A stretch of DNA of 32,490 bases from Verrucomicrobiales bacterium. Lineage in GTDB: Bacteria > Verrucomicrobiota > Verrucomicrobiia > Verrucomicrobiales > V1-33. The stretch is from contig JAGNEJ010000057.1 in the NCBI GenBank assembly GCA_018003315.1, positions 1 to 32,490 of the forward strand, in the 5' to 3' direction. Position 1 is the stretch's first letter. The number at the start of each line of letters is the position of its first letter. Shown here piece by piece: positions 1,504-32,115 of this stretch. The position numbers were made by a program, and so were the translations under genes. Below the pieces are notes generated by a model. That model was not told the DNA's origin and ran no database searches. It saw only the letters and a program-made list of their open reading frames with translations.

Positions 1504-3342
1504 ATGAGCGACACGCAACTTGAAGGGGCCACGGCCCTGGCTGAAGCCAGGTCTGAAGGCAAAAAGCCCAAAGCGGCAAAAAAGGCCGTGGCTAAAAAAG
1601 CCGCGACCAAAAAAACCGTGGCTAAAAAGGCCCCCGCCAAAAAGACCGCAGTCAAAAAAACGGCTGTCAGGAAGTCCGTGGAATCAGACTTGTCCTCCGA
1701 GCCCGCACCCGTCCGTAAAGCAAGCCGCAAAAAGGCCCCCAAAGCGGAAGTCGAACCCGTGATGGAAACCGCTCCGATGCCGATCATCGACGTTCCTGCG
1801 CCTCCGATGGAGCCGGCCTTCAGCACCCCCGCTGCGGTTCCGCCCGCGCCGCCTGCCTCCCCACCGGTTTCCGTGGAATCTTCCGGCTCCCCGACGTCCG
1901 CAGAATCTCCCCCGAATGCTGCCGCCCCGCCGTACCCGTCCCAGCGCCCTGGAGCACCTGCGGCGGTACCCTACAGCGCACCCCGACCACAAAATGGTCA
2001 ACTGTCACGCAAGGCCCGCCGGTGGGAAAAATTCAAGCGCAAAAAGCAGCTGCAGCGCGAAGCCGCCGCAGCTGGAGGAGGAGGAACTTGGACACCAGGG
2101 GAAGCGGCTGGAACCGCTCCCGCCGCGGAAGCGCCCACTGGTGACGGTCCGGAGCCAGGCCCCAGGCCGTGGCAGCAAGACCGGTTTCAGAAATCCCCCA
2201 GACCACCCAAGCCGGAACCGGTGCTGGGCCCGCCGGAGGACACTGCCGGACTGCTGGAAATTTCCCCCAAGGGATTCGGATTCCTGCGGCTGAAAGAAAA
2301 AAACTTCGCCCAGTCACCCACCGACACGTTTGTCACTCCGGAAATGGTTCGGAAATACGGACTGCGCGACGGTGTCTGGATTGACGGTGTGGTGCGGCGC
2401 AGCCATCGCGGCCCGCAACTGACCGAGTTGAAAATGGTCAATGGCTTCGCTCCGGATCAATACCGCCAGCTCCCGATTTTTGAGGAACTCACCGCGATCA
2501 ATCCCAACAAGCGCTACGTGCTCGAAACCGATGCGAAGCACCACACCACGCGGCTCGTGGACATGGTGGCACCGATCGGCCGCGGGCAGCGCGGACTGAT
2601 TGTCGCTGCGCCGCGCGCCGGAAAAACCACGTTTCTGGAGCACATGGCCCAGGCCATCCTGCACAATTACGAGTCGGTGAAACTCATCGTCCTGCTAGTG
2701 GACGAACGCCCGGAGGAAGTCACCGAATTGAGCCGCGCGCTTCCCGGAGCGGAAATCATGGCCTGCAGCAATGATCAGGACCCCAGAGCCCACATCCGCA
2801 TGGCGGAACTGGCCATCGAACGCGCCAAGCGACTTGTTGAGGCCGGTGAGCATGTTTTCATGCTGATGGATTCGATCACCCGGCTGGCCCGCGCCTTCAA
2901 CAATGTCATCCGCGGCGGCGGCAAGGCGATGTCCGGGGGCATCGACTCCAGAGCGCTGGAAATGCCCCGCAAGATTTTTGCCGCGGCCCGCAACACCCGC
3001 GAAGCCGGCTCGCTCACCATCATCGCCACCGCACTCATTGACACCAATCAGAAAGGCGATGACCTGATCTTCCAGGAATTCAAGGGAACCGGCAACATGG
3101 AACTGGTGCTCGACCGGAAAATCGCCCAGCAGTACATCTATCCCGCGGTGGACATCTTCAAATCCGGCACCCGCCGCGAGGAACTACTGCTGCCACCCTA
3201 TCAGCTCGAAAAAATCAACGTCATCCGCCGCGGGCTGGCCGGCCACAAGCCGGCGGAAGCGATGGAACGCATGCTGCATTTTCTGGACCGCTTCAAGTCC
3301 AACGCCGAGCTGCTCACGAACATCGCAACCTCGAAAGGCTAG
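1504..3342 (+). CDS. rho: Transcription termination factor Rho with long basic and proline-rich N-terminal extension
   Basis: A 612-residue Rho, against about 420 in E. coli. The conserved part spans roughly residues 249-612: an OB-fold RNA-binding domain (GLLEISPKGFGFLR), Walker A APRAGKTT (369-376), DERPEEVTE (400-408), Walker B VFMLMDSITR with D456, and the secondary RNA-binding loops around GGGKAMSGGID (471-481). It is the hexameric RNA helicase that ends transcription. Residues 20-58 are lysine/alanine repeats (KKAVAKKAATKK, KKAPAKKTAVKK) like the tails of histone H1, and residues 85-245 are Pro/Ala-rich, probably disordered. Extended N-termini occur in several phyla and add RNA affinity. 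The ATG at 1504 gives the whole basic tail. The next gene starts 66 bases downstream. Confidence 0.96.
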   Translation: MSDTQLEGATALAEARSEGKKPKAAKKAVAKKAATKKTVAKKAPAKKTAVKKTAVRKSVESDLSSEPAPVRKASRKKAPKAEVEPVMETAPMPIIDVPAPPMEPAFSTPAAVPPAPPASPPVSVESSGSPTSAESPPNAAAPPYPSQRPGAPAAVPYSAPRPQNGQLSRKARRWEKFKRKKQLQREAAAAGGGGTWTPGEAAGTAPAAEAPTGDGPEPGPRPWQQDRFQKSPRPPKPEPVLGPPEDTAGLLEISPKGFGFLRLKEKNFAQSPTDTFVTPEMVRKYGLRDGVWIDGVVRRSHRGPQLTELKMVNGFAPDQYRQLPIFEELTAINPNKRYVLETDAKHHTTRLVDMVAPIGRGQRGLIVAAPRAGKTTFLEHMAQAILHNYESVKLIVLLVDERPEEVTELSRALPGAEIMACSNDQDPRAHIRMAELAIERAKRLVEAGEHVFMLMDSITRLARAFNNVIRGGGKAMSGGIDSRALEMPRKIFAAARNTREAGSLTIIATALIDTNQKGDDLIFQEFKGTGNMELVLDRKIAQQYIYPAVDIFKSGTRREELLLPPYQLEKINVIRRGLAGHKPAEAMERMLHFLDRFKSNAELLTNIATSKG

Positions 3343-3408: not shown

Positions 3409-4560
3409 TTGAACGCCGCCATTCCCGTCGAGCATACCGAGCCCATCAACGCGCAGATTCTGGCTGTTTCCGAAGACCTGGTGGGCGGGTTTGCGGAACA
3501 ACCGTTTCACGTCATTGCAGAACGCAGCGGGGTGCCGCTGGAAACCGTACTGGAACGCATCCGCGCCATGATGGAGGCCGGAGTCATCCGCCGGGTGCGC
3601 CTGACGCTGCAAAGCACCCGGCTGGCGCACGGAGCGCTCTGCGCGTGGAAAGTCGAACCGTCCAGGCTCGACGCCACCTTCGACTGGATGTTTCGCGAGG
3701 ATCCGTTCAGCGGCCATGTCGTCACCCGGTCCACCGACCGGGAAATCTCCGGCAGCGACTACCGGCTGTGGACCACGCTGAAGGTGCCGCTGGGTGAATC
3801 CCTCGAAGAGCACGCCCGTGTGTTGCAACGACTGACTGGCGCGGAAGATTGCATCCTGCTTCCGGCCAGGGGCATTTTTGCCCTCGGCGTCGGCCATGTG
3901 CGCCGCAAGTCCCTGGAACCGGGAGACCGCGCCGCCGAACCCGCCCGGATGCTCACGACCGATTCGGTGGAATTATCACCGGAGCAATGGGAAGTGGTCC
4001 TCGCGCTGAAAGAGGAACTGCTGCCAGAAGAAATTTGTGAGAACCCCTGGGCAGGCCGGGCCGCCCAATTGGGGATGAGCCGGGAGGAATTTTTCCGGAT
4101 CTGTCGGCAACTGGAGCAGAAAAATGTCCTTGGCCGCTTTTCCACGTTTCTGGAACATGTGAAACCCTCCGTCACCGGAGAGCGGGTCACGCGGTTCAAT
4201 GGACTTTTCCACTGGGCCGTGCCGCCCGGCATGGAAGAAAAGGCCGCCGGTGAAGTGGGCCGTCATACCTGCATGACCCACTGTTACTGGCGCGACGGAG
4301 GGCCGAAATTTGCCAACGTCAACATCATGGGAGTCATCCACGGACAGGAACGCGACCGGGTGCTGGCCCACAAAGCAGCCATTGACCAACACCTGGCGGA
4401 GGAAGGCATTCCGGTGACTTACACCAATGTGTTCTGGGGCGGACGCAGCGAGATCAAGCCCTCAGAAATTTCACCGAAAGTTTACCGGGCAATGCACCAA
4501 AAATGGAGCGGCATGGACAACGTTTTGCAGCCCCTGGGCAAACCAGGCAGCACCGTCTGA
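3409..4560 (+). CDS. Fused two-domain siroheme decarboxylase-like protein (AhbA/AhbB or NirDL type, Lrp/AsnC fold)
   Basis: The 383-residue protein has two similar halves. Each begins with a winged helix (about 13-62: HVIAERSGVPLETVLERI; about 188-245: AAQLGMSREEFFRICRQL) followed by an AsnC-like domain. The second half carries THCYWR (290-295), an HG pair at 311-312 and a late FWGGRSEIKPSE segment. These resemble the S-H-C-Y, H-G and R-E-K/F-K motifs of AhbB/NirH siroheme decarboxylases. Those enzymes convert siroheme to didecarboxysiroheme in alternative heme or heme d1 synthesis. Start: TTG at 3409, because the first helix aligns only if translation begins near here; no ATG lies in frame before residue 54, and an in-frame CTG at 3382 is possible. 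No other heme gene is adjacent. A pure Lrp-type regulator is the alternative. Confidence 0.62.
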   Translation: MNAAIPVEHTEPINAQILAVSEDLVGGFAEQPFHVIAERSGVPLETVLERIRAMMEAGVIRRVRLTLQSTRLAHGALCAWKVEPSRLDATFDWMFREDPFSGHVVTRSTDREISGSDYRLWTTLKVPLGESLEEHARVLQRLTGAEDCILLPARGIFALGVGHVRRKSLEPGDRAAEPARMLTTDSVELSPEQWEVVLALKEELLPEEICENPWAGRAAQLGMSREEFFRICRQLEQKNVLGRFSTFLEHVKPSVTGERVTRFNGLFHWAVPPGMEEKAAGEVGRHTCMTHCYWRDGGPKFANVNIMGVIHGQERDRVLAHKAAIDQHLAEEGIPVTYTNVFWGGRSEIKPSEISPKVYRAMHQKWSGMDNVLQPLGKPGSTV

Positions 4561-4565
4561 AATGA

Positions 4566-4601
4566 AAAACCCGCGTGCGGTCTGAAACCGACGCGGGTTT
4601 T
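4566..4601. terminator. Bidirectional intrinsic terminator between convergent genes
   Basis: AAAACCCGCGT (4566-4576) pairs perfectly with ACGCGGGTTTT (4591-4601), and CGGT/ACCG (4578-4581 with 4587-4590) extends the stem past a one-base bulge. A-run on the left and T-run on the right make it work on both strands. It sits between the stop of the siroheme-decarboxylase-like gene (4560) and that of the M29-like gene (4630). Confidence 0.85.
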
Positions 4602-30207: not shown

Positions 30208-30714
30208 TCATTGGCATTCCCCGACCTCGGCGAGCGCCAGGCGGATCAGGTCTTCTGAAAGCCAGATGCCCTGGGAGCGCATGCGCCGGATGCTTTGATC
30301 GAGGCTGGCAATAACACCTTCTTTCCTTGCCCTGACCAAGATGCCGAGGGAACCGGTCACCTTTAACCCATGAAGTCTTGCCACTCTTCTTCCGGATTTT
30401 TCGTCGATGGCAACCGTGGCGATGCCACGCTCAAGAGCGGTGTGAATCACGCTGGCCTCGCCCCGATCGAGTTCACGAGTCAGAAATGCCGGCAGTCCGC
30501 GCGATGGAGGCAACCGCCGGATGGTCTCCCAGGTGGCGCGAACAAGTGCCGGTTCCGGGGCCAGCGGCCCACCCGCGGAAAGTTCTTCATCCACCTCTCC
30601 GGGCACCCAGACATTTTGATAGAGTGAAGCCAACCAGTCCAACTTCCCCGTGGCGGCAACCAGAGCGATGACGGGTCCCGTATTGATGACAATCTCAGGC
30701 GTGCTCGATTTCAT
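30208..30714 (-). CDS. DUF3368 PIN-like putative toxin
   Basis: A 168-residue protein: EIVINTGPVIALVAATGKLD, VWVPGEVDEELSAGG (Glu after the first strand), LDRGEASVIHTALERG and TVAIDEKSGRRVARLHG, then GSLGILVRARKEG. This is the layout of DUF3368, a PIN-like family usually paired with UPF0175. The start at 30714 overlaps its partner gene by 20 bases. Proposed role: RNase toxin; this is inferred from the family. Confidence 0.85.
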   Translation of the reverse strand: MKSSTPEIVINTGPVIALVAATGKLDWLASLYQNVWVPGEVDEELSAGGPLAPEPALVRATWETIRRLPPSRGLPAFLTRELDRGEASVIHTALERGIATVAIDEKSGRRVARLHGLKVTGSLGILVRARKEGVIASLDQSIRRMRSQGIWLSEDLIRLALAEVGECQ

Positions 30715-30946
30715 CGGCAAATTCGTCTCCATCCCACCCTACCGCCGCGACTCCCACCCGGTGCAGGGAGCGCAGGAACGTGCCGCGGTCCATCGGGATC
30801 AGCGCCGCGGCTTGGCCCGACGAGAGGCGGCCGAGTTCGAACAACTTGGAGGCCAGGGCCAAACGCATGGTGTGCTCGAACTCATCCCGGGACAACCTCG
30901 CGCTGTCAGGCAGGCATTCCGGGTATTCGATAACCAGGGTGTTCAT
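30695..30946 (-). CDS. UPF0175 putative antitoxin
   Basis: An 83-residue protein: MNTLVIEYPECLPDSARLSR, EFEHTMRLALASKLFELGRL and SSGQAAALIPMDRGTFLRSL, the UPF0175 helix-turn-helix family. It is commonly encoded before DUF3368 proteins, as here. The start at 30946 is the family start; the frame is open upstream but runs through the 7-bp array at 31000-31041 (giving FQVSGFRFQVS) and is probably not translated. Confidence 0.85.
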   Translation of the reverse strand: MNTLVIEYPECLPDSARLSRDEFEHTMRLALASKLFELGRLSSGQAAALIPMDRGTFLRSLHRVGVAAVGWDGDEFADEIEHA

Positions 30947-30999
30947 GGGATGAAGGTGCGCCGCAAACCGCATTCCTGCAAGCTGCGAAGCCCGGAGGG

Positions 31000-31041
31000 C
31001 GGAAACCTGAAACCTGAAACCTGAAACCTGAAACCTGAGAG
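31000..31041 (+). repeat. Heptanucleotide array, six units, upstream of the UPF0175 gene
   Basis: CGGAAAC, CTGAAAC (4), CTGAGAG in exact phase. It lies in the 143-base gap between the acyltransferase stop (31090) and the antitoxin start (30946). Purity of the four central units suggests recent copying. Confidence 0.95.
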
Positions 31042-31089
31042 GGAAGCGACGAGAGCCGCACGAAGCCCTCACCTGCCATGCTCCCTGCC

Positions 31090-32115
31090 CTATGTTCCCT
31101 GCGGAACCGCAGGCTCGGGCTGCTGCTTCGCGCCCGCACGCCAGCGGCGGCTCCATTGGTGGCAGGGGTTTTCAACGTAGCGCCAGAACAGCCACGCCGC
31201 CGCCAGACTGAACATCGTGGCCAGGATAATGATCCCCCAAATGGCGATGCCACTGTCGCCATAGCGACCGAGCAAGTTGACCACCCGCCCGCCCAGGGGC
31301 ACATGGACGAGGTAAAGGGAGAACGAAATGGTACCAAGAAACGCAAAGGCACGTGGCAGCCGCAGCTTCCAGAAAAGAATGAACGCCGCCGATGCCACCG
31401 CAGCGACAGCCGCCGCAAGCGAAACCTTGGCGAAGAGGACAGCCACGACACCCACCATCGCCAACCAGGGAAGCACGCGTTTGCTTCCGGCCATCTGGTA
31501 CCAGGCCGCCGCCCACCCGAGACAAAAATACGGCAGATAGGCAAACAGCCAACGTGAGTCCGTCACCATCCATGCCGTGCAGGCGAGTCCAACTAACCCG
31601 ACCGCCAACCAACGGGGACGCTCCAGACGCACAACCGGCAGCAGCAAACCCGCCAGCAGGTAGAACTGCACCTCGATGAAAAGCGTCCACGCGACTACCA
31701 GGAGCCATTGGCGGCCCAGCACCCCGCTCAGATACGTGGAGTCGGACAGCAACGAAACTGCTGCGTTTTGAAAAAAGTGCGGGGAAACATTTCCCGCAAA
31801 CCCCGGAGTGCGCGACGAGGCAAAGTTCAGACCTAGCGCCAGAACGCATGCCGCGACGAAGGGCGGATGCACACGCAACATCCGTTTGACAAAGAATCCG
31901 CCGAAATCCGCCCAACGGTAGCCGGTGCGCCACATCGAAAGGGGAATCACGAAACCGGAAATGACGAAAAACGCCTCCACCCCGAGGAATCCCAATGAGC
32001 TAATCTCAGCCGCAGCGCCTTTTCCCAGCAACTTTCCGCCGTGGGTCATGTGGAACCAGCATACCATCAGGGCGGCGATTCCGCGCAGGGCATCAATATG
32101 GGTAAAACGAGACAT
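31090..32115 (-). CDS. Acyltransferase-3 family membrane O-acyltransferase
   Basis: A 341-residue protein: MSRFTHIDALRGIAALMVCW with the R-G-I-A motif, LGFLGVEAFFVISGFVI, FFVKRMLRVHPPF, and a late SFSLYLVHVPL and FWRYVENP, all typical of the OafA/YrhL family, with about ten membrane spans. Such enzymes acetylate sugars of surface polysaccharides. The start at 32115 is chosen as upstream translation is not protein-like. Gap to the preceding gene: 68 bases. Confidence 0.93.
   Translation of the reverse strand: MSRFTHIDALRGIAALMVCWFHMTHGGKLLGKGAAAEISSLGFLGVEAFFVISGFVIPLSMWRTGYRWADFGGFFVKRMLRVHPPFVAACVLALGLNFASSRTPGFAGNVSPHFFQNAAVSLLSDSTYLSGVLGRQWLLVVAWTLFIEVQFYLLAGLLLPVVRLERPRWLAVGLVGLACTAWMVTDSRWLFAYLPYFCLGWAAAWYQMAGSKRVLPWLAMVGVVAVLFAKVSLAAAVAAVASAAFILFWKLRLPRAFAFLGTISFSLYLVHVPLGGRVVNLLGRYGDSGIAIWGIIILATMFSLAAAWLFWRYVENPCHQWSRRWRAGAKQQPEPAVPQGT

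What the first reader, a model, noticed from the sequence alone, without database searches (positions are those of the whole stretch)
3409..4560. Fused siroheme-decarboxylase-like gene beside rho and yebC
Two AhbA/B-like halves are fused and no other heme gene is near. If active, the organism may use the siroheme branch of heme synthesis, or heme d1. The final motif (GGRSEIKPSE) differs from known decarboxylases, so a derived regulator is possible.
Basis: partly seen in the sequence, partly recalled or inferred. Interest (0 to 1): 0.5.

Follow-up and report, generated by a model that had tools for sequence, protein, structure and literature searches.

The report
Siroheme-based heme synthesis in aerobic bacteria
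The gene most likely makes an enzyme that trims siroheme on the way to ordinary heme, and it stands in for the missing standard heme enzymes across a large group of Verrucomicrobiota, many of which lack a known enzyme for the step after it.

Summary
ORF 3409-4560 (+) encodes 383 aa made of an AhbA-like and an AhbB-like half. Its closest solved relative is fused siroheme decarboxylase NirDL (profile E 6e-72; Z 26.2 over 303 residues); DNA-binding Lrp proteins score far lower. The iron-ligand and catalytic residues His103, Arg107, His291, Tyr293 and Arg295 are kept. The 'odd' end motif GGRSEIKPSE aligns with the canonical REFKK tail.

The main result is phyletic. Of 50 genomes with a close orthologue, 1 has hemE. 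In a 25-carrier panel, 24 lack both hemE and ferrochelatase; 16 of 16 same-class genomes without the gene have both. All 18 non-Akkermansia carriers have coproheme decarboxylase (ChdC). So the siroheme branch most likely makes heme b here. In a 0.9-Mb endosymbiont-like pair with no siroheme-using reductase, CobA stays under strong purifying selection.

The open part: 15 of 25 carriers have no recognisable AhbC (the next step), and all six radical-SAM proteins of one 0.9-Mb genome have other assignments. An unknown, possibly oxygen- or peroxide-dependent, enzyme is predicted.

The rho/yebC neighbourhood is incidental. Enzyme activity was not tested.

The parts
3409..4560 (+). fused AhbA-AhbB/NirDL-type siroheme decarboxylase gene, 383 aa, TTG start
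3409..3903 (+). AhbA-like half (about residues 1-165): HTH plus ligand-binding domain
   Evidence: aligns with 4czd chain A, E 1.7e-33
3715..3729 (+). HVVTR, residues 103-107: H103 and R107 align with the AhbA iron ligand His115 and with Arg119; the motif Tyr is V105
   Evidence: H103 and R107 invariant in 34 of 34; roles from PMC4145669 passages
3964..4557 (+). AhbB-like half (about residues 186-383)
   Evidence: aligns with 4czd chain B, E 8.7e-29
4279..4293 (+). HCYWR, residues 291-295: the HXYXR motif with catalytic Arg295 (Arg102 of AhbB)
   Evidence: H291, Y293 and R295 invariant in 34 of 34; Arg102Ala inactive in PMC4145669 (passage)
4432..4470 (+). FWGGRSEIKPSEI, residues 342-354: clade signature aligned with the canonical REFKK tail; K350 kept, Lys152 of AhbB aligns with P351

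Best explanation
The gene encodes a fused AhbAB/NirDL-type siroheme decarboxylase that works in heme b synthesis. [quoted passage not shown] In this organism the AhbC-like protein would turn that into coproheme, and ChdC (with oxygen or peroxide) or the AhbD-like protein (without oxygen) would turn coproheme into heme. The pathway replaces HemE and HemH in the carrier families sampled, which look like Verrucomicrobiales, Methylacidiphilales and Chthoniobacterales (names inferred). Shown here: homology, fold, kept residues, gene presence and absence, selection on CobA. Inferred: the reactions, their order and the conditions.
For: Profile and fold match to NirDL. Active-site residues kept (with roles). 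hemE in 1 of 50 close carriers; hemE and ferrochelatase in 1 of 25 panel carriers and in 16 of 16 same-class non-carriers. ChdC in 18 of 18 non-Akkermansia carriers and 0 of 8 classical genomes tested. Own genome has CobA-HemD, chelatase, AhbC-like, AhbD-like and ChdC genes. In the 0.9-Mb genomes G057/G036 CobA has dN/dS 0.079 although no NIR_SIR reductase is found. In other classes of the phylum the homologue sits in operons with ahbC, ahbD, hemC/cobA/hemD, hemB and hemL.
Against: Both NCBIfam equivalog cut-offs are missed. The motif Tyr of half 1 is V105 and Lys152 of AhbB aligns with P351. AhbC-like proteins are found in only 10 of 25 carriers, so the pathway as known is complete only in some. 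No clear precorrin-2 dehydrogenase in any of 35 genomes. G013 carries both systems; G030 (Akkermansia-like) has neither hemE nor the fused gene.
Confidence: 0.8

Rival explanations
1. Uroheme route: the CbiX chelatase puts iron into uroporphyrin III, the fused protein removes all four acetate carboxyls to give coproheme directly, and ChdC finishes. This would explain both the missing AhbC and the missing precorrin-2 dehydrogenase.
For: AhbC-like proteins missing in 15 of 25 carriers; no clear precorrin-2 dehydrogenase in 35 genomes; NirDL was crystallised with an iron-uroporphyrin III analogue (title of 4czc); chelatase in 17 of 18 and ChdC in 18 of 18 non-Akkermansia carriers.
Against: CobA stays under strong selection in G057/G036, which have no NIR_SIR reductase and only two TP_methylase hits; 10 of 25 carriers have AhbC-like proteins.
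Confidence: 0.09
2. Derived heme- or siroheme-sensing transcription regulator of the Lrp/AsnC type that no longer decarboxylates.
For: HTH domains are present; both equivalog cut-offs missed; PMC4145669 cites DNA binding by a NirL homologue (passage).
Against: Catalytic residues invariant in 34 of 34; Lrp-type proteins match far more weakly; a regulator alone would leave carriers with no HemE replacement.
Confidence: 0.05
3. Decarboxylase for heme d1 of a cytochrome cd1 nitrite reductase.
For: The own AhbC-like protein scores slightly better with NirJ1 (440.8) than with AhbC (424), both below 650. Cytochrome cd1 was not searched for.
Against: ChdC, an enzyme of heme b, goes with the gene in 18 of 18 non-Akkermansia carriers; G057 has no NirJ among its six radical-SAM proteins; hemE and hemH are missing, so a heme b route is needed in any case.
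Confidence: 0.03

Closest known systems
NirDL siroheme decarboxylase of Hydrogenobacter thermophilus (PDB 4ch7, 4czc)
   Same: Fused two-half architecture, fold (Z 26.2 over 303 residues), HXYXR in half 2, His and Arg in half 1
   Different: About 20-23% identity; V for Tyr in half 1, GGRSEIKPSE tail, extra loops in both halves; the known protein belongs to heme d1 synthesis (recalled)
AhbA/AhbB of Desulfovibrio desulfuricans (PDB 4czd, 4un1) and Methanosarcina barkeri
   Same: Each half matches its own subunit; residues with assigned roles kept except Lys152 of AhbB
   Different: Two separate genes there (PMC3942049 passage), one fused gene here; no heme gene beside it here
Fused AhbAB in ahb operons of other Verrucomicrobiota classes
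   Same: Fused; invariant H103, R107, H291, Y293, R295
   Different: 21-25% identity, REFKK tail, in operons with ahbC and ahbD; ChdC in 0 of 6 such genomes tested
Haloferax volcanii pathway with ahbC, ahbD and chdC
   Same: Siroheme branch with a ChdC ending used in air (PMC5746218 and PMC8305020 passages)
   Different: Archaeon, has AhbC; most carriers here have none
Deinobacterium chartae, a control genome
   Same: Rings for NirdL-like HTH, ChdC and CbiX and not for hemE or ferrochelatase
   Different: Seen only as a control row; its sequences were not examined

Membership tests
AhbAB/NirDL siroheme decarboxylase family | Two HTH plus AsnC-like ligand-binding halves, AhbA-like then AhbB-like | tested here: met
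AhbAB/NirDL siroheme decarboxylase family | Fold of NirDL over the whole chain | tested here: met
   Z 26.2, 303 aligned, on a model with mean pLDDT 93.9
AhbAB/NirDL siroheme decarboxylase family | HXYXR motif with catalytic Arg in the AhbB half | tested here: met
   HCYWR 291-295, H, Y and R invariant in 34 of 34
AhbAB/NirDL siroheme decarboxylase family | Iron-ligand His and Arg in the AhbA half | tested here: met
   H103 and R107 invariant in 34 of 34; the Tyr of the full HXYXR motif is V105, so the motif as printed is not complete in this half
AhbAB/NirDL siroheme decarboxylase family | Lys152 of AhbB (proposed acetate contact) | tested here: inconclusive
   aligns with P351, K350 is next to it; PMC4145669 calls its density poor
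NCBIfam equivalogs AhbA (NF040708) and AhbB (NF040707) | Score above the curated cut-off | tested here: not met
   67.4 of 140 and 92.8 of 125 bits; not filed under these equivalogs, but as a divergent homologue of the wider family
AhbAB/NirDL siroheme decarboxylase family | Decarboxylates siroheme | not testable with these tools
   needs an enzyme assay
Siroheme-dependent (Ahb) heme pathway | No HemE and no ferrochelatase in the genome | tested here: met
   own genome and 24 of 25 panel carriers
Siroheme-dependent (Ahb) heme pathway | AhbC (didecarboxysiroheme deacetylase) | tested here: inconclusive
   own genome has an AhbC-like protein at 424 of 650 bits; 15 of 25 carriers have none
Lrp/AsnC transcription regulator | Closest relatives are DNA-binding Lrp proteins | tested here: not met
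   best Lrp-type match E 2e-7 against 6e-72 for NirDL
Heme d1 synthesis | Cytochrome cd1 nitrite reductase and nir genes in the genome | not tested
   no cd1 search was run; the own AhbC-like protein is below the NirJ cut-off (358.9 of 515)

The most novel reading that the evidence does not exclude
Aerobic Verrucomicrobiota, including methanotroph-like and endosymbiont-like lineages, make heme b through siroheme by an oxygen-adapted route: CobA, a DR2241-type chelatase, the fused decarboxylase, an unknown non-radical-SAM enzyme in place of AhbC (perhaps using oxygen or peroxide at the substrate's own iron, or ChdC doing both steps), then ChdC. A similar set may exist in Deinobacterium.
Probability: 0.5. 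Interest if true: 0.78.

Novelty: new variant of a known kind. Interest (0 to 1): 0.62.

Why it matters
The siroheme route is usually told as a pathway of archaea and anaerobic bacteria: PMC8529089 calls it specific to archaea (passage); [quoted passage not shown] Here it appears to be the heme pathway of whole families of Verrucomicrobiota, including Akkermansia and lineages with a ChdC ending. It offers an answer to why heme genes were reported missing in Xiphinematobacter, whose authors guessed at 'diverged analogs' (PMC4607532 passages). It leaves one sharp gap: no AhbC in 15 of 25 carriers, so an unknown enzyme can be hunted in a 0.9-Mb genome.

Tried and rejected
Neighbourhood as a clue: rejected. 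Neighbours of the fused gene differ by clade and I recognised no heme gene among the recurrent ones. Neighbours of chdC, cobA and the chelatase gave hemA-hemC-cobA/hemD and a DR2241/Fer4_23 partner, but no AhbC substitute.

AhbC substitute among radical-SAM proteins of a 0.9-Mb genome: rejected for G057. Its six are MiaB, MqnC, HemW, MqnE, LipA and a KamA-family protein. The six of G036 were listed but not classified.

Precorrin-2 dehydrogenase by PF13241: only 20-31 bit hits, some in hemA frames by position; not resolved.

First ORF picking took antisense frames and was replaced. The first orthologue alignment read minus-strand loci in the wrong orientation and was replaced: 87 loci matched; 76 proteins kept after dropping the own copy L002, identical copies and those under 330 aa.

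Tree: the 30 close orthologues form one side of a branch (100/100) and mostly group by family, f3 apart; the inner order is mostly unresolved and the outside rows have long branches, so no claim on transfer is made.

Literature: Verrucomicrobia with siroheme-dependent heme (1 paper), Akkermansia with heme biosynthesis and siroheme, Methylacidiphilum with heme biosynthesis, Verrucomicrobia with uroporphyrinogen decarboxylase and heme, Verrucomicrobia with AhbC, Verrucomicrobia with HemQ, Akkermansia muciniphila with siroheme. I saw listings, and passages only of the papers read; none that I read describes this pathway in the phylum. The library lacks most subscription journals, so this is not proof that it is unpublished.

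The terminator scan did not flag the inverted repeat that I saw after the gene.

Full report
What is there. The window is one contig (C138, 32,490 bases) of a 5.09-Mb, 155-contig genome, 96.5% complete. The ORF at 3409-4560 (+) has 383 codons and a TTG start. Pfam finds two AsnC_trans_reg2 and two NirdL-like HTH stretches. Half 1 matches NCBIfam AhbA and half 2 AhbB, below both equivalog cut-offs. The best solved relative is the fused NirDL of 4ch7/4czc, then AhbA and AhbB of 4czd. With a 34-sequence profile the E-values are 6.4e-72, 1.7e-33 and 8.7e-29; the best Lrp-type regulator is at 2e-7. All 34 members match both the AhbA and AhbB models. The AlphaFold2 model has mean pLDDT 93.9 and matches 4ch7 at Z 26.2, rmsd 4.0, 303 aligned; apart from 4czc, the same protein, no row exceeds 9.5.

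Active site. Passages of PMC4145669 give the roles: His115 and Arg119 of AhbA; His98, Tyr100, Arg102 and Lys152 of AhbB; Arg102Ala is inactive. By the alignments these are H103, R107, H291, Y293, R295 and P351. The first five are invariant in 34 of 34 sequences, including divergent homologues at 21-25% identity. Two things differ: the motif Tyr of half 1 is V105, and the second tail lysine is P351 (K350 is kept).

Who has it. A phylum search of 288 genomes found matches in 73: 50 close orthologues (E 3.0e-71 or better; one Akkermansia-like copy, G220, is in two pieces) and 23 weak or divergent.

Replacement of HemE and HemH. hemE at E <= 1e-60 is in 82 of 288 genomes: in 1 of the 50 close carriers (G013) and 0 of the 23 others (Fisher p 2e-7 for the 50 against the rest, not corrected for kinship). 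Forty-three same-class genomes have hemE and no close orthologue. In a hand-chosen panel of 53 (25 carriers, G030, 16 same-class non-carriers, 11 with a divergent homologue), hemE over the cut-off is in 1 of 25 carriers, 16 of 16 same-class non-carriers, 0 of 11 and not in G030. Ferrochelatase, searched in 48 of the 53, is in 1 of 25, 16 of 16, 0 of 6 and not in G030. Several carriers are single-contig genomes (G021, G024, G036, G042, G057), so gaps do not explain the absence. The ferrochelatase survey PMC8529089 found verrucomicrobial ferrochelatases only in Opitutaceae and Puniceicoccaceae, 4 sequences (passage), which fits. Exceptions: G013 has both systems; G030, an Akkermansia-like genome, has neither decarboxylase but has AhbC-like.

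End of the pathway. ChdC (PF06778), searched in 40 of the 53, is in 18 of 18 non-Akkermansia carriers, 0 of 7 Akkermansia-like carriers, not in G030, in 0 of 8 classical genomes and 0 of 6 with a divergent homologue. The copies of the own genome and of G057 pass the NCBIfam cut-off for hydrogen-peroxide-dependent heme synthase. AhbC-like proteins of 395-505 bits (cut-off 650) are in 10 of 25 carriers: the own genome, G215, G190 and the 7 Akkermansia-like; the other 15 reach at most 92.9 bits. The AhbD-like proteins of the own genome and G024 pass TIGR04053 (444 and 445 of 395 bits) and score 307 and 314 of 500 with AhbD. So the own genome has parts for both endings. That ChdC means growth in air is inference.

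Start of the branch. A CobA-HemD fusion of 505-511 aa was confirmed in G057 and the own genome (TIGR01469 285 and 282 of 185 bits); a TP_methylase hit is in all 53 genomes. A two-domain CbiX chelatase is in 17 of 18 non-Akkermansia carriers, not found in G237; it also occurs in classical G125. In 14 of 17 fetched stretches a DR2241/Fer4_23-like region follows it, fused or as a neighbour; G057, G036 and G280 keep only the CbiX pair.

The 0.9-Mb test. G057 and G036 have CobA-HemD, the chelatase, the fused gene and ChdC, and no hemE, hemH, NIR_SIR reductase or AhbC. In all, 10 of 25 carriers lack NIR_SIR yet have the TP_methylase hit. Between G057 and G036, dN/dS is 0.079 for the CobA half, 0.080 for HemD, 0.109 for the fused gene, 0.147 for ChdC, 0.127 for hemC and 0.073 for atpA (Nei-Gojobori, one pair). 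CobA thus stays useful where no siroheme-using reductase is found, which speaks for precorrin-2 as a heme precursor. PMC4607532 reports Xiphinematobacter as enriched for heme genes with hemD, hemE, hemY and hemH missing and suggests diverged analogs (passages); these results offer candidates.

Anchor. In other classes of the phylum the homologue lies with ahbC and ahbD, and with hemC/cobA/hemD, hemB and hemL. This is clear in stretches L233, L234, L235, L240 and L242 of the 12 fetched; the other seven show parts of the set or, in L243, none (hemB named by eye). In the own class the genes are scattered.

What remains unknown. The AhbC step in 15 of 25 carriers, the precorrin-2 dehydrogenase in all 35 genomes tested, and activity. 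The six radical-SAM proteins of G057 are assigned elsewhere, so the substitute there is unlikely to be a radical-SAM enzyme. Haloferax authors left open where aerobic coproheme comes from (PMC5746218 passage), although that archaeon has AhbC. A 2007 paper notes that Deinococcus geothermalis lost HemE, HemZ and HemY (PMC1978522 passage), and the control genome Deinobacterium chartae rings for the same set as the carriers.

Verdict. The new part is the scale (a clade-wide replacement of HemE and HemH), the ChdC ending in bacteria, and the missing AhbC.

Noticed in passing
L234:3015-4790 (G276): The fused AhbAB-like frame of 591 aa also carries a CbiX hit: a possible decarboxylase-chelatase fusion.
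   Followed up: no
L243:6321-7535 (G215): G215 has a second, divergent fused homologue (about 25-27% identity) besides the close orthologue; no ahb or nir gene recognised beside it.
   Followed up: partly
L144:9239-11564 (own genome, contig C86): The AhbD-like gene lies between a Crp/Fnr-like regulator and a truncated-hemoglobin-like ORF (named by eye), which would fit control by oxygen.
   Followed up: no
L216-L232, chelatase gene: DR2241-type chelatase: two CbiX domains with a DR2241/Fer4_23 region fused or adjacent in 14 of 17 stretches, lost in the 0.9-Mb genomes.
   Followed up: partly
control genome Deinobacterium chartae: Rings for NirdL-like HTH, ChdC and CbiX but not for hemE or ferrochelatase: the same pathway may exist in Deinococcota.
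   Followed up: no
window 1504-3342: rho has a long lysine/alanine-rich N-terminal extension with a weak histone-H1-like HC2 match (28.4 bits, cut-off 40).
   Followed up: no
window 4570-4601: GC-rich inverted repeat followed by T's just after the gene, seen by eye; the scan did not list it.
   Followed up: no
window 6000-32454: Large surface-polysaccharide cluster on the minus strand: O-antigen ligase, several glycosyltransferases, carbamoyltransferase, asparagine synthase, methyltransferases and an acyltransferase, with a UPF0175-DUF3368 pair at 30208-31156.
   Followed up: no
G220:C1:1693197-1694271: In one Akkermansia-like single-contig genome the orthologue is in two overlapping pieces in different frames: frameshift or assembly error.
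   Followed up: no
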